Below, one piece after another: positions 16,319-60,098 of a stretch of 64,000 nt of DNA; position 1 is the first letter of the stretch; each line of letters opens with the position of its first letter. Source of the stretch: Gemmatimonadaceae bacterium (lineage in GTDB: Bacteria > Gemmatimonadota > Gemmatimonadetes > Gemmatimonadales > Gemmatimonadaceae); the NCBI GenBank assembly GCA_037721215.1, contig JBBJNV010000020.1:1-64000 (forward strand), in the 5' to 3' direction. Both the position numbers and the translations under genes were made by a program. The notes under the pieces were generated by a model that saw only the letters and a list, made by a program, of their open reading frames with translations, searched no databases and was not told where the DNA came from.

Positions 16319-18342
16319 CGGGAAAGAGTCTGCGACAGTGAGGGTCGCCGCTGTTCTCTGTGGCGATCCTCTTCCGAGACGAACGTGACCTCGTGCTCAA
16401 CCCGTCGTCGCCGGCGCAACCTCACCTGGAGGTCCATCACCGCGCGGGTCGCCAGCAGGGCTTTACGAGGGCCCGAAGTGCGCGCGCGACGCGAGAGGTT
16501 GTCGTAGCCGGACTTGCGAATTTCATCGAGGATGCCCCTGTACACATAGCCGGCAACAGCGACAGGTAGCTGAAGTCCCCGCGGAAGATCCAACACCCCC
16601 GTAAATCCGGCGCGGTAAGCAGACTCGGCCGCAACGATCAACTCTTCCATCAACGCCGCATACCCGGCGGGGGGCTGGCCAAGGCTGAGCTCGGCCTCCG
16701 TCACCTGGTGCGTCCGCATCATATCCGCCGGCAGATAGCATCTACCTGCGCGCAAATCCTCGCCTACGTCGCGAAGAATATTGGTGAGCTGCATCGCGTG
16801 CCCCATCGCCTCTGCCCGTCGCAACACAACATGATCCCGAACGTTGAAAAGCTCGGAAATCCAGAGACCCACAACGGAGGCGACACGGTATGTGTATCGC
16901 TGCAATTCCAGCATCCCGCCATACCGCTCGCCGCGAAGATCCATCCGCATCCCCTCGGCAAGCTGCTCCGCATAGATGAAGGGAACGCGAGCGCCAGCCA
17001 TTTCACTCATGACGCGATCGAGCAGGGGAAGACCAGAGGCATAACCGCCGTACGCGCGGCGGGAGAGCTCCATCCACTCATCGAGCAGCAAGGCGGCGGT
17101 GACTGGATCGGTGGCCGGATCGTCCACCAGATCGTCGGTAAATCTGCAATACGCGTAAACGCGAGTAACACGGTCGTCGGCACCACCAGGAAAAAACCGC
17201 GTCGCGAACCGAAACGAGCGGCTGTTCCTCGCCAGATATGCGTTCTCGCTCGCCGAAGGGATCAGCTTTGCAATCAGTTGCGGGCTGGGGCGCAGCACGG
17301 AAGGCGATCGAGCCGTGGAAACGCTGAGAGGCAGGAAGGTCGGGGGGGCATTGGCAGGCGATGTGATCCGAGAGACACCGGCGGTCCATCGAGCTGCTGC
17401 TACCTCCTCTCGCTCGACCGCTTCTCCAGCACGGCGACGCCAGCCCCCTAACATTTCGATGAGGGTAGCGCTGTCGCCAAAGTGGCTCACGATTTCTCTG
17501 GTGACAGCATCCACCTCTTCTTCGTACTGACACAGGCAGCATCGAAGTGCGGTTTGTCCCGCCGACTCGACATGCAATGCGCGCATAAGAGAGTCTGGCT
17601 CAGCACCAAATGCCTCAACGCCAAGCTTGGCGAGCGGCCACGTCCAGTGCCCTTGTGCGTAGTCGACCAGAGCGGGCTTCCCGGTATCGGTCGCGGGCGC
17701 AAGATCCAGAAGGTCGTCCAGCATCTGATAGACCAGGCCTACCCGGCATCCTATTTCGTGATAGGCCAGGACACGCTCGGGGGCGCAGAGCGAGGCACCA
17801 AGCGCTATTGCACAGCCGATCAGCTCTCCAGACTTTCCGCCCGCAATCGCAGAGTATTCCTCAAAGCAGAGGACCCGGCCAGTCGCGCGTGCCTGTGCAA
17901 GTTCTCCGGCGACTGTCCGCTCTACGGCGCGGGCAAAGAGCTCGACGAATGATGGGCTGCCCGTTCGCACAGCGTATCGATACGCCGTCGTGAGAAGATG
18001 ATCCCCCTGCACGAGCGCAGCAGCTGCACCGCGCGTGGCAACAACGGTCGGAATACCTCGCCGCACCGCCGCACCGTCCACAACATCGTCGTGAAGAAGC
18101 GATGCTTCGTGCGCGAGCTGCACCGCCATCGCGCCAAACCAGAACTCAGCTGGCGGCGGCGCGGCGGAGAGCGAACGCCAGCCTGACAATGCCACCACCG
18201 GTCTGATGAGCTGTCCCTCCAACTGCGCGACAGCCATTCCCTCCGATTCGGCCCACTGGGCAATCGACTGGAGCGCACCACGAGCCAGGCCCGCGTCGGT
18301 TTGCGTCTTTCTTACGATCTGAGGGATGAATGTCGCAATCAT
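16315..18342 (-). CDS. Fused geranylgeranyl-diphosphate synthase and phytoene synthase (CrtE-CrtB)
   Basis: A 675-residue two-domain isoprenoid enzyme. Residues 1-300 form a polyprenyl synthetase with the first Asp-rich motif in LLHDDVVD (Asp85, 86, 89) and the second in YQMLDDLLDL (Asp209, 210, 213). A Pro/Ser/Ala-rich linker spans about 315-360. Residues 365-675 are a squalene/phytoene synthase with YAYCRFTDDLVDD and NILRDVGEDLRAGRCYLP, the two Asp-rich diphosphate-binding motifs. The fusion is continuous with no frameshift. It should make GGPP from IPP/DMAPP or FPP and pass it straight to phytoene. It starts 2 bp after cruF and overlaps the acyltransferase by four bases. No separate crtE or crtB exists in the window. 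Confidence 0.9.
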   Translation of the reverse strand: MIATFIPQIVRKTQTDAGLARGALQSIAQWAESEGMAVAQLEGQLIRPVVALSGWRSLSAAPPPAEFWFGAMAVQLAHEASLLHDDVVDGAAVRRGIPTVVATRGAAAALVQGDHLLTTAYRYAVRTGSPSFVELFARAVERTVAGELAQARATGRVLCFEEYSAIAGGKSGELIGCAIALGASLCAPERVLAYHEIGCRVGLVYQMLDDLLDLAPATDTGKPALVDYAQGHWTWPLAKLGVEAFGAEPDSLMRALHVESAGQTALRCCLCQYEEEVDAVTREIVSHFGDSATLIEMLGGWRRRAGEAVEREEVAAARWTAGVSRITSPANAPPTFLPLSVSTARSPSVLRPSPQLIAKLIPSASENAYLARNSRSFRFATRFFPGGADDRVTRVYAYCRFTDDLVDDPATDPVTAALLLDEWMELSRRAYGGYASGLPLLDRVMSEMAGARVPFIYAEQLAEGMRMDLRGERYGGMLELQRYTYRVASVVGLWISELFNVRDHVVLRRAEAMGHAMQLTNILRDVGEDLRAGRCYLPADMMRTHQVTEAELSLGQPPAGYAALMEELIVAAESAYRAGFTGVLDLPRGLQLPVAVAGYVYRGILDEIRKSGYDNLSRRARTSGPRKALLATRAVMDLQVRLRRRRRVEHEVTFVSEEDRHREQRRPSLSQTLSR

Positions 18343-36659: not shown

Positions 36660-39044
36660 TCACGTATCCCGGCTGCACTGATACAGAATTAACGCTGCGA
36701 TGGACGAGCCATCTGACTCATCCTCGGACGCAGCGAGGGAGTACTCCGCGCCGAAAGCTTCGATGGATTCAAGCCAGTCTTCATCATTCACCTTTGACGA
36801 CGCCAACTGGCAAAGCGCTCGCTCTGCCTCAATTCCGTACGTCGCGAGCACCACGGCGCGAGAACGATCTGCGGCGGCAGCAGCCCGACCTCGCAGATGA
36901 GGCTGCGCACGAATGGAAACAGTAGCTATTCGTCTCAGCAAAGCGCGTCGCGCCTGCGTCACCGAAACGGCGCCGGGCGTGATACCACGCATCGCATCGA
37001 CTGCGCGGAAATGCGAGTGCAGAGCAAACAGCGCGGCGCGCAATGCGATCCGGGATACAGGCTCGACGCTGCCGATTATCTGCGTCACTGTCACTGTTTC
37101 GCATACTGCATTAAGATCCCCGGTGGCATGCCCGTCGTTCGATGTCAACAACACCTTCCGCCCGTTCAGGACACACGCCGCGAGAAAGCCTTCGCGTTTA
37201 GCGGCGACGGCCGTTAGAAAGCCGGTCGTCGAAAGCGGCAGATGAGCGGATTGGCATTGCGAATCAGGATCACCACCTTGCCATGTCGCCATAGCGCGAC
37301 GAATCGCCTCCGCCGCTGCTGGCGCCGCAACCCCACCTGATTTGACCTCAGTGCGGGCAGATTCCCGGAGCCCGCGATTTGTCTCCCCGGTACCGGTAAC
37401 TACGGGCGCGCAAGGCGGCGATGCGGCAGCCCCGCCGTACGCCTGCAGGTCTGCAAACGGGGGAAGCACGTGATAATCGCCTCCGATGCTGGCTTGCGCG
37501 ATGGTGAGTTTGTCCGCGATGATCTGCTCGAATTGCAACAGAGCCTCGGCACTCGCAGGAGGTTTGAATACATAGGACCACACGCGTCGATGCTCCGATT
37601 CCAGGCGCACGATTCGGCCAGTGCGCTGCACCAGCCTCGCCGGTGTCCAGGGAATATCCAGATGCACCACTACTCCGGCGTCCTGAAGATTCACACCCTC
37701 GCTGAGGATATCCGTAGTGAGGAGCAGCGATATCTGCTCAGCGGGGCTCGGTGGTGATGCACGTCGAGCGCGCGGGGCGAAACAGTCGAGAGTTTCCCGC
37801 CGCGACATCGTTCCGCCCGCTACTCTTGCGCCTCGCGCTGTAAGCGCCGCCGACCGACCGCGCCCTGCAAGCGACCGAAACAATCCGTTGACCGTATCGG
37901 AGTACTGCGAGAACGCGACGATCTTGACCCCTTCGTGCCGTTTCGCGATCCGCAGGAGCGCCGAAGCGCGCTCCTGGTCAGCTTGCCGCGTGTGATCCCT
38001 GCTTCGGAAGATCTCGAGCAGCCCCTCGCGATGCGCCCGCGCCATGCCGAGGTATTCTGCTGCTGAGCGAGTGGGCGGCGCGATCAGCTCCGGAAATGCG
38101 AGCTGCATCGAATCTTCGCCTGCGACCCATGCACGCAACTCAGCGTCAGAGGGAAATACGCCGCATTCCAGGCTGGCAATCAGCGCGGCAGTTTTCTGAA
38201 GGCGGCGCCTCAGCCCTCCCAGCAGAGCTGATTCGCTTGACGACCATTGCCTGATGAGCGATCTGGCGATCAACACGCCCCCGTCCCCGCCGTCGCGTGG
38301 AGGCAGTGGCGGCGGCAGGGCCAACACAGCCGCCGGCAAAGCATCATCCCGCGTCACATGCACCCACTCGGCCGCTTCAGCAACCGGAATTGCCTGCCCC
38401 TCACCGACAGTCTCACGCTCACGACGAATGATGCATCGGGAGATTTCGGGATCGCTCAGCGATCCGGCTCGAGAGCCGAGAAACAGTGCAAGCAGCACCG
38501 GCAGATCGCTCGATCGGTTATGAACAGGCGTGGCTGATAGAAGCAGGGTAGGTGTGTTGGAGGCCAGCGCTGACAGCTCCCGGTATCTGGCAGTCGACGG
38601 GTTGCGAGCATGGTGCGCCTCGTCGACGATGAGGAAGGCGCAGTTTTCGTGGGGTCGTCGCCTCCTGCTCAACAGCTCGAATGATGTAAAGGCCACTGCA
38701 ATTCCCGCGCGTTGCGCGGACTGGCGCCACATATCCTCCAGCGATGCAGGAGCTACAACAAGTATGCTCCGGGCATGCCGCGCTACCGCGAGGGCAATGA
38801 ACGTTTTACCGGTTCCGACTTCGTCACCCAGTAGTGCACCGCCAAACTCCTTGATTGCGGCTGCAAGACGTGCGACGGCCGACTGTTGGTGTGGTCGCAG
38901 CGTAATTTCGCCGAGGGCGATTTCGTGAGAGTTCGATGCGGTGCAGGTTGCATCGCCCAGCCACCATCGGGATATGAATGATCGGACTGCGTCAGGAGTG
39001 GCGACGCGCAATGTTCCCGAAGTAGCGCTTATCGAACGCTCCAT
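36660..39044 (-). CDS. SNF2/DEAD-type helicase of a two-gene methylase-helicase island
   Basis: A 794-residue superfamily-2 helicase. Motif I is GDEVGTGKTFIAL (about residue 76), motif II DEAH in LIVDEAHHARN (about 138), motif III LLLSATPVHNRSSD, and the C-terminal RecA lobe has the motif V-VI run LLLTTDILSEGVNL... VQRTGRIVRLES (about 471). The 300-residue C-terminal part is not recognised and shows no nuclease motif. The start at 39044 lies inside the 3' end of the methylase gene, overlapping it by 16 bases; the open frame upstream is the methylase shadow. SNF2-type helicases beside large adenine methylases occur in DISARM and related phage-defence loci. It probably translocates on DNA to sense or restrict foreign DNA (inference). 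Confidence 0.85.
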   Translation of the reverse strand: MERSISATSGTLRVATPDAVRSFISRWWLGDATCTASNSHEIALGEITLRPHQQSAVARLAAAIKEFGGALLGDEVGTGKTFIALAVARHARSILVVAPASLEDMWRQSAQRAGIAVAFTSFELLSRRRRPHENCAFLIVDEAHHARNPSTARYRELSALASNTPTLLLSATPVHNRSSDLPVLLALFLGSRAGSLSDPEISRCIIRRERETVGEGQAIPVAEAAEWVHVTRDDALPAAVLALPPPLPPRDGGDGGVLIARSLIRQWSSSESALLGGLRRRLQKTAALIASLECGVFPSDAELRAWVAGEDSMQLAFPELIAPPTRSAAEYLGMARAHREGLLEIFRSRDHTRQADQERASALLRIAKRHEGVKIVAFSQYSDTVNGLFRSLAGRGRSAALTARGARVAGGTMSRRETLDCFAPRARRASPPSPAEQISLLLTTDILSEGVNLQDAGVVVHLDIPWTPARLVQRTGRIVRLESEHRRVWSYVFKPPASAEALLQFEQIIADKLTIAQASIGGDYHVLPPFADLQAYGGAAASPPCAPVVTGTGETNRGLRESARTEVKSGGVAAPAAAEAIRRAMATWQGGDPDSQCQSAHLPLSTTGFLTAVAAKREGFLAACVLNGRKVLLTSNDGHATGDLNAVCETVTVTQIIGSVEPVSRIALRAALFALHSHFRAVDAMRGITPGAVSVTQARRALLRRIATVSIRAQPHLRGRAAAAADRSRAVVLATYGIEAERALCQLASSKVNDEDWLESIEAFGAEYSLAASEDESDGSSIAALILYQCSRDT

Positions 39045-42000
39045 GTCATCAGCGCTTCCACTTCCGCATGGCTGACTCCGTAGGCATCGAGGGTAGCTGA
39101 AACGAGCTCGTGCAGCGGAGGCGGTTGTCCACCAGCAGCAGCTGCGCCAATAGGAGCGAGGATCCCGCGCGCGCGCGACCAGTCCTTTGGTGCAGGAAGT
39201 AGAGCCACTGTCCACCCTAAATAGCGATTGTAGCCACCGCGCGCGGGTTCGGCGATGGCATTCAGCCACGCGGCCGTGACCGGCGAGTTCAGCAGCGTTG
39301 CGAGAGTGTGTGCATCGGTCATGTCGCGACATCGCGCGACGTAGCAGGTGTTGAGCGCCACTACTGGATCGCCGGCAGGAATCGCAACCGCGCGCGGTAT
39401 CTTTCCGATATCAGACCAGAAGACGCGCGGGGCTTCCGCGCTTGCGCTTTCCGTGCGAAACAGCATCCACCACCGTTCCCTGCCGGACGCGTCGCTGCGA
39501 TCCTCCAACCGGCGCCGCCAGCTTCCCAGCCATTTGCGGGCATGTGAGGGGAGCTGACGGAGTGCCAGCCCGTCGTCGCCATGCGTCCAGACGATCCGGG
39601 AACCGGCCGGCACTGTTTTCCATGGCACAACCGAGTCGCCTCGCGCGAGCGGGCGAAGCAGGGTGCTCTCGATCTCACCGGACCGCCCCGCCGACTTTAC
39701 GATCGACACTCCATCGATGCAGCTCTCGTCGACCAGCTCGACCACGAATGCTTCATTGCACCCCGTTTTGACTCCGAGCAACGGACGGCCGATGATGCTT
39801 TCGCTCAAGGGAATGCCGGCTGCGGCTAGCAGGTTGAATGCTGTACGAACCTCCGGTGGCAGCAGCAGCCACGGGCTTCCAGGCGATGGATCGAAGGCAA
39901 GTCCCGCCGGGTCGAACGACCATGTTGCGACTACAGAGCGGCGATGGACATACGCGCTGCCGCCCGGACATTCGATGCGATGGGAAGATTTTCTGTCGAG
40001 CGGGATCGAAAACGTATGGGATCCCATGGGATCGGCGCTGCCGGCGGGCATGGTCACCGTTTCCCGCGACTGGCTGATCCCTGGCAAACGGCGCGGCACA
40101 ACCGGGTTCACCGTGGCTACAACCAGCGATGGATAGACCACGGCATCGAACACCTGTGGTGAATCGGTCAGGTCGTGGATCTGGGTGAGTCGCGTATGGC
40201 GCAGGAGAAACTCTCTGACTCCGCCTCCCGCCAGCGATCGCCAGAGTTTGGCTGGGACCAGCAGTGCGATTGTTCCGGACGGGCGGGTGAGACGGACAGA
40301 ACGCTCGATGAACAAAGCAGCGAGGTCGACCTGAGAGGCAAACCCGCTTGCGGCGCCGGCGGACTGCGCGCCGCTCGCCCATGCAGAATGCCGAAAGACC
40401 CAGAAGTCCTGTCGAAAACTGGCGCGTGCAGTGGGGTTGAAGTTGCCGGTTCGCACCCAGGGCGGGTTGCCGATCACGAGATCGAATCCGCCCGCTGCGC
40501 CCGCATCGGCAAAATGTGTCTGAAAGGAGAATGGCAGGGCTGCTCCGCGCCCGATTGATCGCATTTCGCGGCGGGCCTGTCGCATTGCCGTGCGGATCGT
40601 CGCCAGGCTTGCAGCGATGCTGACCGGTGGCGGGAGACGATGTCCAAAAAGGTCGCGAGACCGTGCAGTGGCAATAAGGTCAAGTCGTGTGAGCGTGAGG
40701 GCGCGGATCGTTGCTGCGAGGCTCTCCAGGGCGCAGGCCCGCTCGGTTCGATCGATAGCGCGGGCGAGGGTTTTTCTGCGCGGTCCGGTTGCTCGCGCGT
40801 ACTTCGCGCGGGCGGTTGCCAGTCGCCTCGCGTCGCGGAAGGTGTCGCGGTCATGGAAGCCGCCGCCCGAGAGGGAATCACCAACCCTGATGTGTCGATC
40901 GAGGTTTGGCAGCGGCCGGACTTTCATTGGGTCTCGCTCGGGATCTTCGATTGCCATCGACAGCCAGAGCCGCAGCTCGCACAGCCAGACCGCCATGGGG
41001 TTGATGTCCACGCCGAAGATGGAGGATGTGAGAATCGATCGCCGAATCGTGTGGGGTGGCCGGACGTCTCCCAGGCGGGTGCACAGTGTGGAAAGCTGTT
41101 CGAGGATATGCACGAGGAACGCGCCCGATCCACATGACGGGTCGAGTACGCGAAAGCTGGAGATTCGTCCCAGAATCTCCTCCCGTGCTTCTGGTTCCGG
41201 GATCTGGCCAGCGAGAGCACGTGCTATCGTCTCAATTTCTGTGTGGGGGCCAGAGAGAGCGCCTGTCAGACCTGATGTGGTGAGCTCGCCGACGAGGGAC
41301 TGAGGTGTATAGAACGCGCCGGTTGTTTTCCGGTTCGACGATGCCATCAGCGATTCGAACGATTTGCCAAGCATTTCCGGATCGATTGCGGCTTCGGACC
41401 AGACGGCTGAGTCTTCGCGTGCGGTAAAGCGGTATCTCGTGAGCAAATTCGCGTAGAGGTTGCCGAGTGATTCATCGGTGAACCGGGCGTTGCGGAGGTT
41501 GCGTTCGAGTGGGGAGCGTGCGAAGAGCCCGCCGTTGAGGAATGGCACCTTGCCGAAGGAGCGAGCCCGGGGGGCGCGGTTGCGGGGAGGCGTGTTGAGC
41601 GTGCCGAAGAAGAGCGGAGCCAGTACTCTTTCATGATAGCGTCCGCCGGTAACCATGCAGTCGGCGTAAGTGTTGGCGAGGAATGCGTGATCGCGATTCA
41701 GCCATCCCTTTGTTTCGAGGAAGCAGAGGAAGATGAGGCGGGATGTGTAGACCAGTGCCAGTTCGGCGGCATCGGATTGCGATGTGGCGTTACCCAGGCC
41801 TTGTGCCATGTCGCTGACGGAGCGTTGAAGGCATCGAAAAAAGCTGCGGCCGATTGATTGTCGGCCGAGTGTTTCGAGCCAACGCTGGTGGGTGAGGGAG
41901 TCTGAGGTGGTGGTGGCTGCGGAGAGTGTGCAGATCGTTTCAGCGTCGCTGTCGACGATGCTGTTGCGGTTTGCGATAAGTGCGGCGATTCGGGGCTTGG

Positions 42001-42385
42001 CTGTGTCCTGGCTCCATGAGGCGATGGCTATCTCGCCGGTATCGGCGGTTGCGATGATGAGCCAGAGGAGGTGTGGGGTGGTTTGTGAGAGGTGAGATGC
42101 GCAATCGCTGATGGCTGAGCGAAGTGCGGAGGGGCTTGTTGCCGCAAAGGTCAGTGCGGACAGAGCGCCTTTGCCGCGGGCGATGTGCGGTGAATTGATG
42201 TTGTGGGGGAGTCCGAGTCGTTCGCATGATTCTGCGTCGAGTGGGACGATGTCGGTCGTGAATCCCAGTTCGGCGAGGAGGGCGGTAGCGCTGTTGATAT
42301 CAGTAATGCGACTCAGGAGTGCCGAGGCGGAAGCGAGGGAGTGCATGGGGTCGACGCTACCGCGGGTGGCGGGGGCGGCCGACAT
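39029..42385 (-). CDS. Large N6-adenine DNA methyltransferase (Eco57I/PglX/DrmMI-like)
   Basis: A protein of about 1118 residues (1105 if started at 42346). The N-terminal about 350 residues hold a conserved helical block (SRLIFLCFLETKGWLNRDHAFLA; KTTGAFYTPQSLV) seen in Eco57I-like and BREX/DISARM methylases. SAM-binding motif I is LDPSCGSGAFLVH (about residue 414) and catalytic motif IV is IGNPPWV (about 638). A long C-terminal target-recognition-like part ends with RGGYNRYLGWTV. No PD-(D/E)XK or other nuclease motif is evident at either end. Both candidate starts lack a good ribosome-binding site. Upstream codons of the frame to 42568 are antisense to yceI and were not included. Coupled to the helicase by a 16-base overlap. 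Expected role: self-marking of DNA in a defence system (inference). Confidence 0.85.
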   Translation of the reverse strand: MSAAPATRGSVDPMHSLASASALLSRITDINSATALLAELGFTTDIVPLDAESCERLGLPHNINSPHIARGKGALSALTFAATSPSALRSAISDCASHLSQTTPHLLWLIIATADTGEIAIASWSQDTAKPRIAALIANRNSIVDSDAETICTLSAATTTSDSLTHQRWLETLGRQSIGRSFFRCLQRSVSDMAQGLGNATSQSDAAELALVYTSRLIFLCFLETKGWLNRDHAFLANTYADCMVTGGRYHERVLAPLFFGTLNTPPRNRAPRARSFGKVPFLNGGLFARSPLERNLRNARFTDESLGNLYANLLTRYRFTAREDSAVWSEAAIDPEMLGKSFESLMASSNRKTTGAFYTPQSLVGELTTSGLTGALSGPHTEIETIARALAGQIPEPEAREEILGRISSFRVLDPSCGSGAFLVHILEQLSTLCTRLGDVRPPHTIRRSILTSSIFGVDINPMAVWLCELRLWLSMAIEDPERDPMKVRPLPNLDRHIRVGDSLSGGGFHDRDTFRDARRLATARAKYARATGPRRKTLARAIDRTERACALESLAATIRALTLTRLDLIATARSRDLFGHRLPPPVSIAASLATIRTAMRQARREMRSIGRGAALPFSFQTHFADAGAAGGFDLVIGNPPWVRTGNFNPTARASFRQDFWVFRHSAWASGAQSAGAASGFASQVDLAALFIERSVRLTRPSGTIALLVPAKLWRSLAGGGVREFLLRHTRLTQIHDLTDSPQVFDAVVYPSLVVATVNPVVPRRLPGISQSRETVTMPAGSADPMGSHTFSIPLDRKSSHRIECPGGSAYVHRRSVVATWSFDPAGLAFDPSPGSPWLLLPPEVRTAFNLLAAAGIPLSESIIGRPLLGVKTGCNEAFVVELVDESCIDGVSIVKSAGRSGEIESTLLRPLARGDSVVPWKTVPAGSRIVWTHGDDGLALRQLPSHARKWLGSWRRRLEDRSDASGRERWWMLFRTESASAEAPRVFWSDIGKIPRAVAIPAGDPVVALNTCYVARCRDMTDAHTLATLLNSPVTAAWLNAIAEPARGGYNRYLGWTVALLPAPKDWSRARGILAPIGAAAAGGQPPPLHELVSATLDAYGVSHAEVEALMTWSVR

Positions 42386-42461: not shown

Positions 42462-42941
42462 TTGCGGATCCAGGCGTTGAAGGGGAATCTTGCGGAGCCC
42501 GCCAAGCTCGAGCTGGAGGTCCTCCTGACGACGGCCAGCATCGATACCCGCCAGGAGCAACGTGACACTCATCTCCGATCACCCGATTTTTTCGATGCGG
42601 AGAAGTGGCCCGGAATGCGGTTCGTGGGGAAAAGAATTAAAGGCGATATAAAGGGAGAGTTCACACTCTATGGCGACATGACAATCCGGGATGTAACCCG
42701 TGAGATCGAGCTCGCCGTGACGAACGAAGGCTCAGTCCGCGATCCCTGGGGCATGGCCCGGGTTGGGTTCAGCGCGAAAGGAAAGCTTGACCGGCAAGAG
42801 TTCGGGCTGAGCTGGAATCAGGCGATCGAAGCCGGCGGGTTTGTCGTCGGAGATGAAATCAGGATATCGGTAGATGTGGAGTTCACTGATATCGTGGCGG
42901 AAACAGCCGCGGCTGTGCCGCAACGTCAGGTCGACACGTAA
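42462..42941 (+). pseudogene. yceI-family gene lacking its 5' end
   Basis: YceI proteins are lipocalin-like beta-barrels of about 170-190 residues that bind isoprenoid-like lipids. Here the recognisable part begins in mid-fold at AEPAKLELEV and goes on with TTASIDTRQEQRDTHLRSP, FTLYGDMTIRDVTREIEL and GLSWNQAIEAGG to a normal end. The first about 45-50 residues, including the TWxIDPxHS opening, are missing. An in-frame TGA at 42453-42455 lies just upstream and the only start available is a TTG at 42462. The break lies within about 100 bp of the start of the divergent methylase gene, so the island's arrival probably removed the 5' end. The last 16 bases overlap the 3' end of the copied glycosyltransferase fragment. 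Confidence 0.75.
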
Positions 42942-43076
42942 TCCCGCCCCTTCCACTGTACGTTCTGCCCTCGCATTACAGCTCGCAGGAATATGTAGAA
43001 GATGACTGCGCCTCCAAGGGGATAAAGAAAGGCGCACCAGAGCGGCTCGCCGATGCGCCGATAGGTATCAAGCCAC
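42926..43076 (-). repeat. Duplicated 3' end of the glycosyltransferase gene (left copy, fragment)
   Basis: About 150 bp matching 43966-44116 at a constant offset of 1040 bp. The first 135 bp differ at one base (C at 43035, T at 44075), then similarity fades over about 15 bp to AAGCCAC. The copy carries the last about 50 codons and stop of the glycosyltransferase at 43966-45126 but none of the rest, so it is not a gene. Confidence 0.93.
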
Positions 43077-43173
43077 GTCGAATACTTCTGGACGCGCACA
43101 CCTTTGTTCTGTGGATGGCGATACTTTGACGACGGTGATTGTGCGGGTTCCTATCAAATCTCGCTTGAGAGTT

Positions 43174-43731
43174 ATGGATTTTTCCAGTAGCCCGAAATTG
43201 CAGAGCGTAAGCACGCGGCGACTTTACCTCGACTGGCCGTCCAACTCGCGCTTCTGGTTCCGAGCGCTGTCGCTGATCACCCTCCTTGCATCATGCTCGG
43301 TGCTCACTACCGGGCCGGATGTTTCCAGCGTAAGCGGGGGCTATAAGTTAGAGGCTGTGGATGGGCAGCCATTACCCGTGATTATTGAGAATACGGCGTG
43401 TCCACGTGAGATTTTTGACGGCGAACTTCATCTCGATCCGAAGGTCTCGAACCGGCGGGCGCTATACGGCATCATCGTATACGCGAGATTGAGGTGCGAT
43501 CCGAATCGCGTTCTCCAGGGAGAAGCCGGGACACCGCTCTTCGATCTGGGCCGCTGGAGTCTGGATGGCAGACGAGTAAATTTCAAGTCGAGCGAAGGCT
43601 ACGGCGACTATTCAATCACATCGGTAGACCCCGGACCCGCCGACGGTCTTCCAGGTCCCACGCTCGTCATTAATCGCGATGGACGGCAGTATAGATTTCG
43701 ACGCGACCGTCTTTTCGGTCAGCTGCCCTGA
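43174..43731 (+). CDS. Small lipoprotein, family copy A
   Basis: A 185-residue predicted lipoprotein. A hydrophobic stretch (RALSLITLLASC) gives a lipobox with Cys41, followed by the family block TTGPDVSSVSGGYKL, CPREIFDGEL, KVSNRR, VYARLRCDPNR and the end RQYRFRRDRLFGQ. The same protein is encoded at 57421-57978: exactly the same length with Cys41 aligned and roughly two-thirds of residues identical. About 60 bp upstream of the ATG are also similar between the two loci. The frame opens earlier (43111), but the ATGGATT start is shared by both copies. The gene lies between the two copies of the glycosyltransferase 3' end. Function unknown; the beta-rich pattern resembles small gemmatimonad lipoproteins of lipocalin-like look. 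Confidence 0.75.
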   Translation: MDFSSSPKLQSVSTRRLYLDWPSNSRFWFRALSLITLLASCSVLTTGPDVSSVSGGYKLEAVDGQPLPVIIENTACPREIFDGELHLDPKVSNRRALYGIIVYARLRCDPNRVLQGEAGTPLFDLGRWSLDGRRVNFKSSEGYGDYSITSVDPGPADGLPGPTLVINRDGRQYRFRRDRLFGQLP

Positions 43732-43965
43732 GTTCGACGGTTTATCAGGCGTGTTGCGCTCCTGGGTGCACCGAACCTGACTGCGCTGCACGGCTTACTC
43801 ACAGACACGCCGAAATAGGTTTTCTCGAAGTTCATGGCTCGCCGGATCATTCAATTGGGCGTAGGTGACCGCAACCAGCGCCGCTGGAGCCGCATGGCTA
43901 CAGTGGCTGAGAGACTACCCGGCACGTTGCATGGGAGACGATCAAACTGGCTCGATAAGTACCTT

Positions 43966-44116
43966 TCAGGTCGACACGTAATCCCGCCCCTTCCACTGTA
44001 CGTTCTGCCCTCGCATTACAGCTCGCAGGAATATGTAGAAGATGACTGCGCCTCCAAGGGGATAAAGAAAGGCGTACCAGAGCGGCTCGCCGATGCGCCG
44101 GTAGATGTCAAGCCAC
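43966..44116 (-). repeat. Duplicated 3' end of the glycosyltransferase gene (right copy, in the intact gene)
   Basis: Partner of the copy at 42926-43076. Here the repeat is the natural 3' end of the intact glycosyltransferase gene. The flanking bases before the stop differ (ACCTT here, CAACG in the left copy), so the repeat begins exactly at the stop codon TCA on this strand. Confidence 0.93.
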
Positions 44117-45126
44117 CAGACGAGAGATACCGTGCTGACGACGACCGCCCAGACGTAAATGACGGTCGCAACCGGCTGCACGAGCGATATCAACAGAACG
44201 ACCAGTGGCAGAACGCTCCACAGAGGCGCAAGAAGGAGAAGCAGGGGGAAGAAGAATCGTCCCACTCGTCCCATCGGAACGGAATCGCGACCGCCTGCGT
44301 AAACATTCTTCCCCCAGCCGTGGACGAGTTCGCCAAATGACGTGTACATCCGCGTCGAGAGCTGCTCGATTCCTTCCTCCAGCACTACATGCTTGCCGCG
44401 TGCGAAGAAGCGTTGCGCCATCATCATATCGTCAGCGACATGGGACTTGACCAGCGAATGGCCGCCAAGCTCGTCGTATGCCCGGCGCTGAACGAACAGA
44501 CACTGCCCGTTGGCGATCTTGTCACTGGTTTGCCGTGATTTCGTGACGCTCTCCGTGCCGCCGTATCGCACCGCCATTATTCCGAAAATGTGGGGCTGGA
44601 CGATTCGCTCCCAGAAACTTCCCAGCTCCTGTCGTCCCATCACCGAAAAGAGGTCGGCGTTTCGCCGCATGATTGCGTTGACCGACCGGGTCAGCAGGTC
44701 GGGCGCATGCTGTGTGTCAGCGTCGGCGAAGCACAGGATGGTTCCGTTTGCAGCACTCGCGCCGGTGTTGCATGCCCATTGTTTTCCGAACCATCCCTCA
44801 GGAGGATGCGAATTGTCGATCACGCGGACGCGGGAATCCCGCAAGGCGATGGCGCGCGCGAGTTCACCGGTGCCGTCGGCGGACTGGTCGTCGATGACAA
44901 CAACTTCACATTCAGGGTACGTCGTGGTGAGAACCGAATTCAGGCAGCGTTCGATATTGCCCGCCTCGTTCCGCGCCGGTATCACGATCGTCACCAATGG
45001 CGCGGGCGAGGGCGGCTCGACACTCTCGGAAGCGAGCGATACCGAGTGTCGCACACGGAGAGCGGTGGCGATGTGCGCGATCACCCAGGGCAAGGCCGCT
45101 GCGGCGCCGATCAGAGTTTCCATCAC
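43966..45126 (-). CDS. Family-2 glycosyltransferase, CruC/CrtQ/HpnB-like
   Basis: A 386-residue membrane-bound glycosyltransferase. An N-terminal membrane helix is followed by a GT-A domain: VTIVIPARNEAGNIERCL, VVVIDDQSADGT (first Asp pair), PPEGWFGKQWACNTGA, and the metal-binding DxD as FADADTQHAP. The last 100 residues form three or so membrane helices. The GWxGKxWAC block is shared with carotenoid glycosyltransferases (CruC, CrtQ) and hopanoid-associated HpnB. With CruF in the window making a hydroxyl, glycosylation of a carotenoid is possible, but the gene is 20 kb from the crt cluster. Its 3' end is copied at 42926-43076. Confidence 0.88.
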   Translation of the reverse strand: MMETLIGAAAALPWVIAHIATALRVRHSVSLASESVEPPSPAPLVTIVIPARNEAGNIERCLNSVLTTTYPECEVVVIDDQSADGTGELARAIALRDSRVRVIDNSHPPEGWFGKQWACNTGASAANGTILCFADADTQHAPDLLTRSVNAIMRRNADLFSVMGRQELGSFWERIVQPHIFGIMAVRYGGTESVTKSRQTSDKIANGQCLFVQRRAYDELGGHSLVKSHVADDMMMAQRFFARGKHVVLEEGIEQLSTRMYTSFGELVHGWGKNVYAGGRDSVPMGRVGRFFFPLLLLLAPLWSVLPLVVLLISLVQPVATVIYVWAVVVSTVSLVWWLDIYRRIGEPLWYAFLYPLGGAVIFYIFLRAVMRGQNVQWKGRDYVST

Positions 45127-55000: not shown

Positions 55001-55744
55001 ATGTCTCTGCCCGCAGGCCGACGAGTGACAACTATCGGTGCCGATCGAGCCGTGCGTGATGCTGCAGCGAGCGCGGCAGGCAACGTCGTCGAAGCGCGCG
55101 ATCTCGCTCGCGAGTACAGGTTTGGCAAGGAACGCGTGCATGCGCTCCGTGGAGTGACGTTCGACATTGCCGATGGCGATTACGTGGCGATCGTCGGACC
55201 CTCGGGGTGCGGCAAGTCGACGTTGCTCAATCTGCTCGGCGCTATCGATCGCCCAACGAGCGGCTCGGTCACCATTCGCGGCGAAAATGTCGGAGCAATG
55301 CGCGACCGCGAGGCGACTTTGTTCAGGCTGCGTAACATCGGTTTCGTGTTTCAGAGGTTCTACCTCATGCAGACTCTGTCGGCGCGCGAGAATGTGGAAT
55401 TGCCGATGGCCGAGGCGGGCGTGAAGTCGGCAGAACGTGTAGCGAGGGCGAGGGAGCTGCTCGCGTATGTGGGCCTGGAACACCGTGAACGGCATCGTCC
55501 GTCGGAGCTGTCGGGCGGAGAGCAGCAGCGTGTGGCTATCGCCCGTTCGTTGTCCAACCGTCCCGCGATACTCCTTGCCGATGAGCCAACCGGAGAGCTC
55601 GACGCGAGAACCGGGGCCGATATCATCGGCCTCTTCGAACGGCTCAATGGGGATGGCACCACGCTTATCGTAGTCACCCATGACGAGGAGCTTGCACGCG
55701 CAGCCCGGCGCCGCATCCACATGCGCGACGGAGTCATTGCGTGA
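55001..55744 (+). CDS. ABC transporter ATP-binding protein (LolD/MacB-type, AttE-like)
   Basis: A 247-residue ATPase. Walker A is VGPSGCGKSTLLN, the Q-loop FVFQRFYLMQTLSARENVELPM, the signature SELSGGEQQRVAIARSL, Walker B ILLADEPTGELD and the switch His VVTHDEELA. These features, and the QRFYLMQTLSA stretch, place it with the LolD/MacB/FtsE-like group that drives mechanotransmission rather than classic solute export. A start at 55001 (MSLPAG) gives a roughly 25-residue lead before the domain. GTGA overlap with the AttH-like gene downstream. Confidence 0.94.
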   Translation: MSLPAGRRVTTIGADRAVRDAAASAAGNVVEARDLAREYRFGKERVHALRGVTFDIADGDYVAIVGPSGCGKSTLLNLLGAIDRPTSGSVTIRGENVGAMRDREATLFRLRNIGFVFQRFYLMQTLSARENVELPMAEAGVKSAERVARARELLAYVGLEHRERHRPSELSGGEQQRVAIARSLSNRPAILLADEPTGELDARTGADIIGLFERLNGDGTTLIVVTHDEELARAARRRIHMRDGVIA

Positions 55745-57297
55745 TCCCGCTTCTCGCGCTGAGGAACATCGTGTCCCGCCCATGGCGCGCGCTGCTGCTG
55801 TTTTTCGGGTACGGCGTTGGAGTTGGAGTGATGGTCGTGCTCCTTTCGATTGGCGAAGCGCTGCTGAGTCAGGCGCGCGACGAGCGGCTGGTGGGTGGCG
55901 GGTCAATTACGGTGCTGCCTCAGGGCCTCGACGTCGAGGTAATGAAGACCGGTGGTGTGGGCGGTCTCTATTTCTCCATCGACCACGGGCGGTTCGTCTA
56001 CGATCAACTTCTCGCGTCGCCGCGGTTGTCGAACGTGATAAGCGCTGTGGCGCCCCAGATCGACGGCCGCCTGACGTATCTGCGCTCGATGAGCGGCGCG
56101 GAGTACGCCGTGCGGGCCAGCGGCGGGGTGCCGAGTGCGGCAACAGCGGTGGGTGTGCCCCTCCAACTCGTCAGCGGCAGCTGGAAGAATGATGAAGGTG
56201 ACCGGAAATGGATCTCCCCGACCCCGCGCGAGCTGCGCGACGAGATCGATCATTTTCATCTACCGCCTGACAATGTTGCCAACCGCGAAAGCTGGGCTGA
56301 GTGGCACTACTTCAATGTGATATCACCGGATAGCAGGCGATGGGCTTTCATTTCTTTCATCGTCGCGGGCGATGTAGGCCGTGAGAAATGGGGCGCGAGC
56401 GTGACGATCACGTTGCGGGAGCAGGGTGGGCGGTCGCGGAAATTTGTCTCATACATTCCGCGTGAGCGCGTCCGTTTCTCTACGACCGATGCCAATCTCG
56501 CGCTCGGCGGCTCGACCGTCACTGTCCGCCCCGACGGCAACTACGTCGTTGCCGCAGAAGCGCGGGAAGAAGGAGGGGGCGATGTCGTGCGTGTGAATCT
56601 CGTTGTCACACCCACGCCGCGTGCGTATTTCCCGGGCGCATCGCTTGGGTCGAGAGAGCTCGTATCCGGGTATGCGGTACCGGCGTTGCGCGCGAATGCC
56701 GATGGCAGGATCTGCGTCGGCGGAGCATGTGAGACCTATGCGGGGGCGCAGTCATATCACGATCACAACTGGGGTGTGTGGCGGGGAGTTACGTGGGACT
56801 GGGGCGCTTCGAGAGCAGGCGGCTACACACTTCTTTATGGCAGAGTGCTGGGGCCGGACCAACGTGGAAGGGAGACCCCGTTATTCGTTTATCTCGTGGA
56901 CTCGCTTGGATTCAGATCCGTGATGCGGCCGCGGCGAATCGACTATACCGACGGGCGGGTGATAGAGGTCGATGGACGGCGTGTAGCTGTTCCGTCGCGC
57001 GCGGTGTTCGCGGATGTACGGGGTGCCGACACACTGCGTGTCGAGCTAGTGATAGACGACGCAATCGGAACCGACACGCGGAAGCAATCGGAGGGCGAGA
57101 GTCCGTTCGCGAATCAGGGCGATGGATTGGCCGGGACTGCCGATAGTCGCGTCGAAGAGCGCGGCGACCCGAACCGCGTCGCCGACGCCGGGCGGCCCTA
57201 CTTCATCCAGATGAAAGGGACCGCAAGCATCAGCGGGCGTATCAGTGGCGAGATCATTCGCGGAACCGGAACCGGATTTTTCGAAACCTATCGTTAG
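55741..57297 (+). CDS. Membrane-anchored AttH/CrtC-like lipocalin-fold protein
   Basis: A 518-residue fusion. The first about 140 residues look like the start of a MacB-type permease: LALRNIVSRPWRALLLFFGYGVGVGVMVVLLS (helix at 16-36) and GGSITVLPQGLDVEVMKTGG. There is no second helix set. From about residue 180 an AttH/CrtC (carotenoid 1,2-hydratase-like) double-lipocalin domain follows, with ESWAEWHYFNV and the diagnostic YHDHNWGVWRGVTWDWG at about 339. AttH in Nitrosomonas-like att operons is a separate protein next to the same ABC genes. Here it is tethered to the membrane by a permease-like N-terminus. GTG start overlapping the ATPase stop. A decayed copy of its 3' part lies at 58110-58247. 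Confidence 0.82.
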   Translation: MIPLLALRNIVSRPWRALLLFFGYGVGVGVMVVLLSIGEALLSQARDERLVGGGSITVLPQGLDVEVMKTGGVGGLYFSIDHGRFVYDQLLASPRLSNVISAVAPQIDGRLTYLRSMSGAEYAVRASGGVPSAATAVGVPLQLVSGSWKNDEGDRKWISPTPRELRDEIDHFHLPPDNVANRESWAEWHYFNVISPDSRRWAFISFIVAGDVGREKWGASVTITLREQGGRSRKFVSYIPRERVRFSTTDANLALGGSTVTVRPDGNYVVAAEAREEGGGDVVRVNLVVTPTPRAYFPGASLGSRELVSGYAVPALRANADGRICVGGACETYAGAQSYHDHNWGVWRGVTWDWGASRAGGYTLLYGRVLGPDQRGRETPLFVYLVDSLGFRSVMRPRRIDYTDGRVIEVDGRRVAVPSRAVFADVRGADTLRVELVIDDAIGTDTRKQSEGESPFANQGDGLAGTADSRVEERGDPNRVADAGRPYFIQMKGTASISGRISGEIIRGTGTGFFETYR

Positions 57298-57420
57298 CTC
57301 AGCCGGTCAGCCCCGGGCGTCAGCGCGCGGCTCTCGGTTATTTAGGGCTTCGCGATTCCCGCTGGCGCTATTATGATGACGGGGATTGTGCAGCGTCTTA
57401 TCATGCCTCCCTTGATAATT

Positions 57421-57978
57421 ATGGATTCTTTGACTGAGGCAATTTCGTGGACGGTCACGGGCATGCTTCCCCGCTCTGGTCGAGATGCTTGCCCCCGCCT
57501 GCGGTTCCTGGGGCTTTCGCTCGTTGGCCTAATCACGGCATGCTCAGCGCTCACTACTGGCCCGGATGTTTCAAGTGTTAGCGGAGCCTATAAGTTAGTT
57601 CTTGTCGACGGGCAGCAATTGCCGACGGCTATTGAGTCTGGTGTTTGCCCGCGAGAGATTTTCGACGGCGAACTCAACCTCGAACCAAAGGTTTCGAATC
57701 GCCGCGAGTCGTATGGGATTCACGTATACGCGAGACTTCGGTGCGATCCAAATCGAATCCTACAGGCGGAATTGCGTAATCAGCTATCTGATCTTGGTCG
57801 CTGGAATCTGGACGGCAGCAGTGTGCAGTTCCGGTCCGACAGGGGCAACGGGGATTTTTCGGTGCAGGTGCAGGATCCATCACTGAATGGCGGTGTCCCC
57901 GGCCCAACGCTCGTCATCAAGTCCAATGGCCGGGAATACACTTTCCGACGAGACCGGCTTTTCGGCAGCCGGCCCTGA
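57421..57978 (+). CDS. Small lipoprotein, family copy B
   Basis: A 185-residue predicted lipoprotein with lipobox GLITAC (Cys41), the paralogue of the gene at 43174-43731. Shared blocks include ALTTGPDVSSVSGAYKL, VCPREIFDGEL, PKVSNRR, VYARLRCDPNR, LGRWNLDG, VPGPTLVIKSNGREYTFRRDRLFGS. The ATGGATT start and about 60 bp before it also resemble copy A (GGCGCTATTATGATGACGG here). It follows the att-like operon by 123 bp on the same strand and is followed by a decayed copy of the attH-like 3' end. The function is not known. Confidence 0.75.
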   Translation: MDSLTEAISWTVTGMLPRSGRDACPRLRFLGLSLVGLITACSALTTGPDVSSVSGAYKLVLVDGQQLPTAIESGVCPREIFDGELNLEPKVSNRRESYGIHVYARLRCDPNRILQAELRNQLSDLGRWNLDGSSVQFRSDRGNGDFSVQVQDPSLNGGVPGPTLVIKSNGREYTFRRDRLFGSRP

Positions 57979-58109
57979 CGTGATCCATGCGACCCCCACC
58001 CCCTTGCACCGCGACTAAACGTGGGTGAACGCAATACGGTTGAACGGGAAACGCTCAACATGTCACTCACCGGGGTTGTTCTTCCACCGTCCTACGCCGG
58101 ATTCTTCGG

Positions 58110-58247
58110 GATGCGATCGGCACCGATACACGGAAGCAGGCTAAGGGGGAAGGTCCATTCGCGAATAAGGAAACGGACCTGGAAAAGGGGGCTGCGGCTG
58201 GGGTTGAGGAACGAGGGGATCCTGCCCGCGCCGTTGACGCAAAGCGT
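58110..58247 (+). pseudogene. Decayed copy of the attH-like gene 3' region
   Basis: Read in one frame, this stretch gives DAIGTDTRKQAKGEGPFAN, then after a diverged spacer VEERGDPARAVDAKR. The intact gene has DAIGTDTRKQSEGESPFAN and VEERGDPNRVADAGR at about 57058-57190. DNA identity over the first 54 bp is roughly 80 percent by eye. After 58247 similarity stops. There is no start codon or ribosome site, so it is a gene fragment. It lies downstream of lipoprotein copy B and overlaps nothing else until the dehydratase stop at 58295. Confidence 0.75.
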
Positions 58248-58294: not shown

Positions 58295-59299
58295 TCAACT
58301 GAAGGCAGGACGATGGTCCACCCCGTCACCCTCGCTCAAAACGCGGTCGAGTACTTCACGATCGACGTTGCCCCCTGACAGTACAACTCCGACGCGCTTG
58401 CCGCGCATGCTGGCGCGTTCCTTCATCAGTGCGGCCATTGCGGCGGCGCCAGCTCCCTCCGCTACGTTGTGCGTGTCGGTGAAGAGTATCCGCATCGCTG
58501 CCTCGACTTCCGGATCGCTCACCTGCACGACACGTTCCGCACCCCGACGGATGATTTCCAGGGCCTCGGGGACAGGCGTGCGACATGCCATCCCGTCGGC
58601 GATCTGCGTTGTGACGTCGTGCGAAACAGGATGACCGGCGGCGAACGAGATCGCGTATGCAGGCGCGGCATCCGACACAACGCCGACGATCTTTGTGTGA
58701 AGACCAAGCGCTTCGCGCGCCGCGATCAGTCCGCAGATTCCCGATCCAAGTCCGATCGGGACGTAAACGGTATCGAGGTCAGGCACGGCTCGAAAAAGCT
58801 CCAGTGAGTAGGTGGCAACGCCGAGGAGCAGGAGTGGATGAAATGCCGGTACGAGATGCCAGGCCCGCTCTACGGCGATCTCAGCCGCGGCCTCCAGTGC
58901 CGCCTGAAAGTCGTGTCCGCGCTCGATCAGCTCAACGCCAAGCCTGCGCATCGCATTGTTCTTTTCGACGGCGTTACCCCGTGGCACCACAACAGCGGCT
59001 GCCAGCCCGTGACGCCTAGCGGCCAGCCCGATCGACTGACCGTGATTTCCCCGCGTTGCCGTGACTACACCGGTTACACCGGGCTCCGTCCGGCGGAGGT
59101 GGTCGAGGTACGTGATGCCGCCGCGTACCTTGAACGCCCCCACCGGGGTCTGGTTCTCGTGCTTCACCCACACCTCCGCCCCTGTTCGCGCCGAGAGCGC
59201 CGGCCAGGACTGCTGAGGTGTCGGTGGCATAACCGTGTAAACGAGCGCGGCTGCGGACTCCAGCTCGTCGAGCGATGGAAGCGGAAAGCTCATCGCCAT
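58295..59299 (-). CDS. PLP-dependent threonine/serine dehydratase-like enzyme
   Basis: A 334-residue fold-type II PLP enzyme. The cofactor lysine is in TPVGAFKVRGG, the substrate loop in VTATRGNHGQSIGLAA (usual SxGNHaQ) and the phosphate-binding glycine loop in VPIGLGSGICGLIAA. Such single-domain enzymes without an ACT domain are catabolic threonine dehydratases or serine racemase-like. TRGNHG replaces the more common SSGNHA. The frame is open 31 codons upstream of the chosen Met; those residues do not look like the family. Its 3' end meets the attH-like fragment. Confidence 0.88.
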   Translation of the reverse strand: MAMSFPLPSLDELESAAALVYTVMPPTPQQSWPALSARTGAEVWVKHENQTPVGAFKVRGGITYLDHLRRTEPGVTGVVTATRGNHGQSIGLAARRHGLAAAVVVPRGNAVEKNNAMRRLGVELIERGHDFQAALEAAAEIAVERAWHLVPAFHPLLLLGVATYSLELFRAVPDLDTVYVPIGLGSGICGLIAAREALGLHTKIVGVVSDAAPAYAISFAAGHPVSHDVTTQIADGMACRTPVPEALEIIRRGAERVVQVSDPEVEAAMRILFTDTHNVAEGAGAAAMAALMKERASMRGKRVGVVLSGGNVDREVLDRVLSEGDGVDHRPAFS

Positions 59300-59409
59300 C
59301 TTTCTACTGTGTGTTCCATGGGACTCCTGGAAGGGCAGAACCGGCAATGCACATGCCAATTGCTGAGTGTTGTCGCCCGCGCCCGGTGACACTCCAGACG
59401 GCGAGCCTC

Positions 59410-59437
59410 TTGACTAGACGGACTAGTTCGTTAGACT
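59410..59437 (+). promoter_or_regulatory. Promoter and probable operator of the Phd/PIN operon
   Basis: TTGACT (59410-59415) and TAGACT (59432-59437) are 16 bp apart, just upstream of the antitoxin ATG at 59446. Between and over them lie two GACTAG boxes nine bases apart and the palindrome ACTAGT (59422-59427), a plausible autoregulatory site for the Phd-type antitoxin. The leader is so short that the transcript would begin at or next to the start codon. Confidence 0.5.
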
Positions 59438-59445
59438 CTGCATCC

Positions 59446-59718
59446 ATGCGCGATACCTACTCATTATATGAGGCGAAGGCGAAGCTGTCGGCAATCGTTC
59501 GGCGGGTTAGAGAAGGGCATAGTGTGACTGTCACTCTTCGCGGCGAGCCAGTTGCGGAAATCCGGCCTATCGCGGCGCCGGCGCCAGGGCTCGACGCCCG
59601 GCTCAAAGAGCTCGAGGATCGCGGCACGATTTCTCCCGCTGTTGGAAGATTTGTCCGCGTTCGTCCGGTTGCCCGAAGGCCCGGAGCACTCAAGCGGTTT
59701 CTGGATGAACGCGATTGA
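59446..59718 (+). CDS. Type II antitoxin, Phd/YefM family
   Basis: A 90-residue antitoxin. The start YSLYEAKAKLSAIVRRVREGHSVTVTLRGEPVAEIRPI is the standard Phd/YefM DNA-binding fold (usual ...eakarLselvdrveaGe.v.itrrGkpvA.lvp). The C-terminal third (about 60-90) is charged and basic and should wrap the toxin. Its stop overlaps the TTG start of the PIN toxin. The ATG at 59446 matches the family N-terminus. Confidence 0.9.
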   Translation: MRDTYSLYEAKAKLSAIVRRVREGHSVTVTLRGEPVAEIRPIAAPAPGLDARLKELEDRGTISPAVGRFVRVRPVARRPGALKRFLDERD

Positions 59719-60098
59719 GCACGCTGGCCTACGTGGATGCCTCGTGCATGGTGTCCATCGCGTTCGGTGAACCGGGATCGACAACCCTCGAAAGGAAGCT
59801 GACGAGCTTCGATCAGATATGTTCTTCCAGTCTGCTGGACGCGGAACTCAGGTCCGCCATGGCGCGGGAGCGCGTCCCGGCGCCTCCCGAACTGCTCGCC
59901 AAAGTTCGCTGGATCATGCCAGATCGGCCTTTAAACGGCGAGATCGGCCGCGTGTTGAACGCCGGTTACGTCAGGGGCGCCGACTGCTGGCATCTCGCCA
60001 CCGCGCTCTACCTGGCGCCGGAACCGGCCGATATCAGTTTCCTTACACTCGATCTTCGGCAACGCGGCGTTGCCCGGGCGCTTGGATTCAAAAACTGA
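59715..60098 (+). CDS. PIN-domain toxin (VapC-like ribonuclease)
   Basis: A 127-residue nuclease toxin. The PIN acidic residues are visible: first Asp in LAYVDASCMVSIAFGE, Glu in SSSLLDAELRSAM, and Asp in VRGADCWHLATALYL and FLTLDLRQR. The start is TTG, overlapping the antitoxin stop (TTGA), the usual coupled arrangement for Phd/VapC. Likely an RNA cleaver inhibited by the antitoxin. A strong terminator follows at 60125. Confidence 0.9.
   Translation: MSTLAYVDASCMVSIAFGEPGSTTLERKLTSFDQICSSSLLDAELRSAMARERVPAPPELLAKVRWIMPDRPLNGEIGRVLNAGYVRGADCWHLATALYLAPEPADISFLTLDLRQRGVARALGFKN

What the first reader, a model, noticed from the sequence alone, without database searches (positions are those of the whole stretch)
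42926..44116. Small lipoprotein gene sits between two near-identical copies of a neighbour's 3' end
About 150 bp (42926-43076) repeats at 43966-44116 with one mismatch in the first 135 bp. The right copy is the true 3' end of the glycosyltransferase and the left copy is a fragment that begins exactly at the stop codon. Between them lie a 185-residue lipoprotein gene and a further gap, with a period of 1040 bp. In the direction of the host gene the order is: host 3' end, insert, second host 3' end. Either a segment duplication was partly deleted, or a module entered at the stop codon and copied the 3' end, as some integrases do. Before that event yceI and the glycosyltransferase would have been convergent and overlapping by 16 bp.
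Basis: partly seen in the sequence, partly recalled or inferred. Interest (0 to 1): 0.72.

Follow-up and report, generated by a model that had tools for sequence, protein, structure and literature searches.

The report
Recombination scar beside a glycosyltransferase gene
A stray lipoprotein gene and the last scrap of its former partner gene were pasted in next to a glycosyltransferase by recombination that left a second copy of that gene's end; the same kind of scar occurs at several other places in this bacterium, so it looks like a recurring, integrase-free way of gaining genes.

Summary
The repeat is real: 42926-43076 and 43966-44116, 151 bp, 97% identical. It is a derived insertion. In relatives the glycosyltransferase (GT) is followed by the Eco57I-type methylase gene (as close as 31-113 bp); none has yceI there. 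The yceI here is a 5'-truncated fragment, and yceI is missing from its normal place elsewhere in the genome. The 185-aa lipoprotein (Y) is the second gene of an X-Y operon; only X's last 36 or so codons remain, fused to the GT copy. The genome holds six Y copies. Four of nine X/Y loci show one layout: complete host gene, cargo, truncated host copy (GT, a MacB-like gene, folD, an aminotransferase). A fifth, without X/Y, is at rpsO; one X locus in another Gemmatimonadota genome matches. Hosts, copy lengths and cargo orientation differ, and no integrase was recognised. At the aminotransferase locus the two copies end in different, both conserved, C-termini. Best explanation: one-sided or single-crossover homologous recombination with foreign DNA; a laboratory study saw partial target duplications of 109-950 bp from such crossovers. 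X resembles NLP toxins and Y lipocalins in weak fold predictions, so an effector-immunity pair is possible but unproven.

The parts
43966..45126 (-). Complete GT2 glycosyltransferase (host gene); its last 151 bp (43966-44116) are the right copy of the repeat
   Evidence: orthologues 50-64% identical in the genus and family
42926..43076 (-). Second, 5'-truncated copy of the GT 3' end, beginning at the stop codon (left copy)
   Evidence: 97%, spacing 1040; four transitions relative to the right copy
43077..43190 (+). Last 36 or so codons of gene X (…EYFWTRTPLFCGWRYFDDGDCAGSYQISLESYGFFQ, stop at 43188-43190), joined directly to the GT copy
   Evidence: intact X-Y operons at C25:69k, C2:157k and in G001
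43174..43731 (+). Y, 185-aa lipoprotein gene with lipobox LLASC; coding constraint dN 0.26, dS 1.24 against its paralogue at 57373
43732..43965 (.). Spacer between Y and the GT stop codon; no homologue found
42462..42941 (+). yceI fragment lacking its 5' part; the last four codons and the stop lie in the GT copy
   Evidence: PF04264 38-150 of 150; N-terminus absent in all three frames
39029..42346 (-). Eco57I-type methylase, the ancestral downstream neighbour of GT (the mechanical ORF runs to 42568; homology starts at about 42346)
36660..39332 (-). SNF2-type helicase, conserved partner of the methylase
55741..57297 (+). MacB-like gene, complete host of a second, older scar
57363..57437 (+). 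Last 24 codons of a second X (WRYYDDGDCAASYHASLDNYGFFD) and stop
57373..57978 (+). Second Y paralogue (65% identical over 160 residues)
58071..58247 (+). Diverged copy of the 3' part of the MacB-like gene (equivalent to 57019-57195)
   Evidence: tblastx 53% over 59 aa, E 5e-15; pN 0.25 against pS 0.77 over the best-aligned 46 codons

Best explanation
It is a recombination scar, not a mobile element with its own integrase. A piece of a foreign or allelic X-Y locus, cut inside X near its 3' end and running through Y, was joined to the GT region by recombination anchored in homologous GT sequence on one side and by non-homologous joining on the other (or by single crossover of a circularised fragment). 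Either way one GT stays complete and a second, 5'-truncated copy of its last 151 bp is left on the far side of the cargo. Shown here: insertion relative to relatives; truncated X, truncated yceI and truncated GT meeting at sharp joins; the same layout at several other loci; diverged but constrained copies at other loci. Inferred: foreign or allelic DNA as source at this locus, the order of events, and that Y was kept by selection.
For: The methylase-GT junction is clean in relatives (31-113 bp apart in G020, G023, G008, G004). The layout 'complete host, cargo, truncated host copy' recurs in this genome: folD-[Z, X]-folD'-xseA (folD and xseA adjacent in 20 of 21 relatives), aminotransferase-[X, Z]-aminotransferase', MacB-like-[Y2]-MacB' and, in mirror form, rpsO'-[5.5 kb]-rpsO-pnp; and in another genome, L147. 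Direct repeats enclose 3 of 9 X/Y loci by blastn against a background of 1.3% of 1.38 Mb (p 0.0002, or 0.005 without the locus that prompted the test). At the aminotransferase locus the copies are identical over about 340 bp and then end in two different C-termini, both matching the conserved family ending: two lineages meet there. The MacB copy differs from its host mostly at silent sites, so it diverged as a working gene. Laboratory precedent: single crossovers that duplicated 109-950 bp of the target locus (PMC3240628).
Against: At the GT locus itself the copies are 97% identical, so a foreign source cannot be shown there. No close strain is held, so the event is not seen as a presence/absence polymorphism. 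Published one-sided events usually delete rather than duplicate target DNA (PMC3240628). ComEC is present, but it is also found in E. coli, so natural competence is not shown.
Confidence: 0.6

Rival explanations
1. Ordinary tandem duplication: an X-Y operon already lay downstream of GT; a segment from the X end to 151 bp inside GT was duplicated and later deletions removed the redundant pieces.
For: GT-methylase is a variable site in the genus (MscS gene in G006, lipoprotein genes in G011, TonB-type receptor gene in G019). Local duplication also occurs inside a Y gene at C2:157k.
Against: Needs several separate deletions here. Does not give two different conserved C-termini at the aminotransferase locus or a constrained, diverged MacB copy.
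Confidence: 0.2
2. Assembly artefact: alleles of two co-existing strains were joined during assembly of a draft genome. The copy is 151 bp, about one Illumina read, with three of four mismatches at its far end.
For: No reads available.
Against: All four mismatches are transitions, unlike typical random read errors; the join at 43076/43077 shares no sequence; the parallel loci have copies of other lengths with decay or coding constraint.
Confidence: 0.12
3. Integrase-mediated cassette that targets gene 3' ends and restores them with a carried copy, as for tRNA-targeting islands.
For: The left copy starts exactly at the stop codon. In G001 an X-Y-Z locus does lie among tRNA-Pro-like repeats, with an integrase-like ORF beside it.
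Against: No recognised integrase or tRNA here; five unrelated host genes, copies from about 150 to 400 bp, both cargo orientations, and one mirror-image case with a host 5' end.
Confidence: 0.05

Closest known systems
Homology-facilitated illegitimate recombination and single-crossover partial duplication (studied in S. pneumoniae, A. baylyi, P. stutzeri and E. coli; PMC3240628)
   Same: One homologous anchor and one non-homologous join; the single-crossover products in E. coli carry a 109-950 bp partial duplication of the target beside the foreign DNA
   Different: Here inferred from natural scars at several genes of one uncultured genome; duplications prevail, whereas the classical one-sided events delete target DNA
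Orphan immunity gene arrays of Vibrio cholerae T6SS clusters (PMC5361080)
   Same: A partner gene is lost or cut back while the small downstream gene is kept; one case moves along a 3' end of an effector gene; the authors propose the same recombination
   Different: X and Y are not shown to be effector and immunity, no T6SS link was found, and the scars lie at unrelated chromosomal genes rather than in one cluster
tRNA- or gene-end-targeting integrative islands
   Same: Cargo between a complete host gene and a second copy of its 3' end
   Different: No integrase, no fixed target, variable copy length, one mirror-image case
Merodiploid formation by transformation in S. pneumoniae (PMC3784515)
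   Same: Transformation creates partial duplications through mispaired homologous segments
   Different: Those are about 100-900 kb tandem duplications

Membership tests
One-sided or single-crossover recombination scar | Empty site in relatives | tested here: met
   GT-methylase adjacent in several relatives; folD-xseA adjacent in 20 of 21 relatives
One-sided or single-crossover recombination scar | One complete and one truncated copy of the target flanking the cargo | tested here: met
One-sided or single-crossover recombination scar | Evidence that sequence from a second lineage entered | tested here: inconclusive
   Supported at the aminotransferase and MacB-like loci; not resolvable at GT, where the copies are 97% identical
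One-sided or single-crossover recombination scar | Microhomology of 3-10 bp at the non-homologous join | tested here: inconclusive
   Nothing evident at 43076/43077, but the donor sequence is not known
Integrase-type genomic island | Integrase gene within or beside the insert | tested here: not met
   None recognised among the ORFs at 42.3-44.1 kb
Integrase-type genomic island | Fixed target site with constant core repeat | tested here: not met
   Hosts are GT, MacB-like, folD, aminotransferase and rpsO
Transposon or IS | Transposase, terminal inverted repeats, short target duplication | tested here: not met
   No transposase recognised and no inverted repeats bounding the insert
Tandem duplication with partial loss | Remnant of a second cargo copy | tested here: not met
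   Only one X tail and one Y at this locus; loss without trace cannot be excluded
Orphan immunity gene | Toxic partner and protective Y | not testable with these tools
   Only weak fold similarity of X to NLP proteins and of Y to lipocalins, both from low-confidence models

The most novel reading that the evidence does not exclude
X and Y are an antagonism module (an NLP-like secreted X and a lipocalin-like lipoprotein Y that protects against it). In this lineage they spread by integrase-free recombination that repeatedly duplicates the ends of unrelated host genes, and Y copies are kept as orphans after X is cut away.
Probability: 0.2. Interest if true: 0.65.

Novelty: new variant of a known kind. 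Interest (0 to 1): 0.45.

Why it matters
One-sided recombination is known mainly from laboratory transformation and is thought to be rare. Several such scars in one uncultured genome, with the end of an essential or conserved gene duplicated each time, would give a readable footprint for this route of gene gain: host complete, cargo, truncated host copy. That footprint can be searched for in any genome and separates this route from integrase islands. It also shows that 'insertion at a gene's stop codon with a copied 3' end' does not by itself point to an integrase. If X and Y are a toxin and its protector, it would extend the orphan-immunity idea beyond type VI secretion clusters.

Tried and rejected
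tRNA or tmRNA target: none in the window. Rfam: nothing above threshold near the locus. Integron cassette: the C1 array of about 150-bp repeats was first taken for attC sites, but the repeats are near-perfect palindromes without the expected core sites and are unrelated to the GT repeat. Methylase and helicase as a recent defence island that cut yceI: rejected, they are the conserved neighbours of GT. yceI remnants at its normal place: none found at C5 between the helicase and carbamoyltransferase genes. GT 3' copies in the GT-methylase gaps of other species: none. Flanking repeats at the other X/Y loci of this genome (C25:69k, C2:157k, C3:49k, C2:31k, G013): none beyond chance. Pfam, NCBIfam and PADLOC for X and Y: no family reached a cut-off; no solved structure by sequence for X. 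Some codon comparisons were run in a wrong frame and are not used: Y against Y (redone), folD fragment 1 and the aminotransferase. Read-error origin of the mismatches: disfavoured, since all four are transitions.

Full report
Observation. The repeat is as described: 42926-43076 and 43966-44116, 151 bp, 97%, spacing 1040, with no third copy in the genome. The window lies on contig 20 of a 3.5-Mb draft genome in 45 contigs. The right copy is the 3' end of a GT2 glycosyltransferase. The four mismatches are all transitions; compared with relatives, the right copy keeps the conserved aromatic residue (Y or F) where the left has Cys, so the left copy looks like the one free to change.

Ancestral state. 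In relatives of the same genus and family the order is helicase, methylase, GT, LD-carboxypeptidase, rhodanese. GT and methylase lie 31-113 bp apart in G020, G023, G008 and G004 (distance between matched ends), so the site is empty there. In others the gap holds different genes: MscS (G006), lipoproteins (G011), a TonB-type receptor (G019), a short C-terminal fragment (G013). The site is thus a variable spot. No examined relative has yceI at this place: their yceI lies between a DEAD-box helicase gene and a carbamoyltransferase gene. In this genome that place lacks yceI, and the fragment at 42462-42941 lacks the N-terminal part. Its last four codons and stop come from the GT copy. The supposed convergent, overlapping yceI-GT pair is therefore a product of the rearrangement.

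What was inserted. The 185-aa lipoprotein Y has five paralogues in this genome, one of them in this window at 57373-57978. Where the locus is intact (C2:157k, C25:69k, G001), Y follows a gene X of 500-600 aa. In the window only the last 36 or so codons of X (43077-43190) and the last 24 (57363-57437) remain. Y is constrained (dN 0.26, dS 1.24 between the two window copies), so it was kept as a working gene while X was lost.

The pattern. The second Y in the window sits between a complete MacB-like gene and a diverged copy of that gene's 3' part (58071-58247); in G013 the next gene follows the MacB-like gene directly. On contig 24 an X gene and a glycine-zipper gene lie between folD and xseA, with pieces of a second folD 3' end before xseA; folD and xseA are adjacent in 20 of 21 relatives. 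On contig 25 an X gene lies between an aminotransferase gene with its small downstream gene and a second copy of both ends (408 bp, 97.5%). Near folD on contig 24, 5.5 kb with a subtilase-like gene and lipoproteins separates a 3'-truncated rpsO from a complete rpsO followed by pnp, the mirror image. In L147, another Gemmatimonadota genome, X lies between the complete 3' end of a gene and a short copy of that end. In a 1.38-Mb sample of this genome, apart from a palindromic repeat array on contig 1, local direct repeats of 60 bp or more enclosing other sequence cover 1.3% of bases; 3 of 9 X/Y loci lie inside one (p 0.0002; 0.005 when the locus that prompted the test is left out). The MacB case was found only by translated comparison and is not in that count. 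The sample was not random: it includes stretches fetched because of X/Y.

Origin of the copies. At the aminotransferase locus the copies are identical for about 340 bp and then differ strongly, yet both end in versions of the conserved C-terminus seen in relatives. That fits a crossover between a resident and an incoming gene and does not fit simple duplication with decay. The MacB copy differs from its host at 77% of silent but 25% of replacement sites (46 codons), and one folD piece shows the same trend (20 codons). At GT the copies are too similar to tell.

Mechanism. One homologous join in the host gene plus one non-homologous join, or a single crossover of a circularised fragment, leaves a complete host gene, the cargo and a truncated host copy. 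In E. coli most single-crossover products examined carried a partial duplication of the target locus; 14 sequenced ones measured 109-950 bp (PMC3240628). Events that delete the neighbouring gene would often be lost by selection, which may explain why duplications are seen. The integrase reading is weakened by the variety of hosts, copy lengths and orientations and by the absence of a recognised integrase. In G001 an X-Y-Z locus does lie among tRNA-Pro-like repeats with an integrase-like ORF nearby, so X/Y can travel in islands too.

Function of the cargo. X and Y match no family at cut-off. A low-confidence model of X (mean pLDDT 64) has as its three best PDB matches NLP proteins (E 0.0035-0.05); a low-confidence model of Y (61) resembles lipocalins (E 0.004 and weaker). 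With the retention of Y after loss of X, this recalls orphan immunity genes in Vibrio (PMC5361080). It remains a lead.

Verdict. The most likely origin is integrase-free recombination with partial duplication of the host gene end. Direct proof needs reads and close strains.

Noticed in passing
57297-58247: Second, older scar in the window: MacB-like gene, X tail, Y paralogue, diverged copy of the MacB 3' part, all absent from the matching place in G013.
   Followed up: yes
L114 3959-7526 (G000:C24): X and glycine-zipper genes inserted between folD and xseA with decayed pieces of a second folD 3' end.
   Followed up: yes
L113 2676-7800 (G000:C25): X inserted beside an aminotransferase gene; a 408-bp copy with a block identical over about 340 bp and two different conserved C-termini of the small downstream gene.
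   Followed up: yes
G000:C24:8945-14949: 3'-truncated rpsO, 5.5 kb of subtilase-like and lipoprotein genes, then complete rpsO and pnp.
   Followed up: partly
L148 4345-16460: X-Y-Z of G001 lies among three partial tRNA-Pro-like repeats with an integrase-like ORF (15072-16331).
   Followed up: partly
L123 4313-18717 (G000:C1): Array of about 150-bp near-perfect palindromes, 85-93% alike, between HipA-like, Fic-like and kinase-like ORFs; not clearly attC sites.
   Followed up: partly
59275-60098: Phd/VapC-like toxin-antitoxin pair and a dehydratase-like gene (58295-59392) in the same stretch that G013 lacks.
   Followed up: no
G000:C11:16887-18717: Methyltransferase-like gene with an 81% fragment copy of its inner part 1.3 kb away.
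   Followed up: no
G000:C7:19859-21084: 58-bp tRNA-like repeat 1.1 kb apart, possibly a small tRNA-targeted insertion.
   Followed up: no
L084 5743-8042 (G000:C2:122k): X cut by an IS21-like element (IstA and IstB-like ORFs), leaving an X tail followed by Y.
   Followed up: partly
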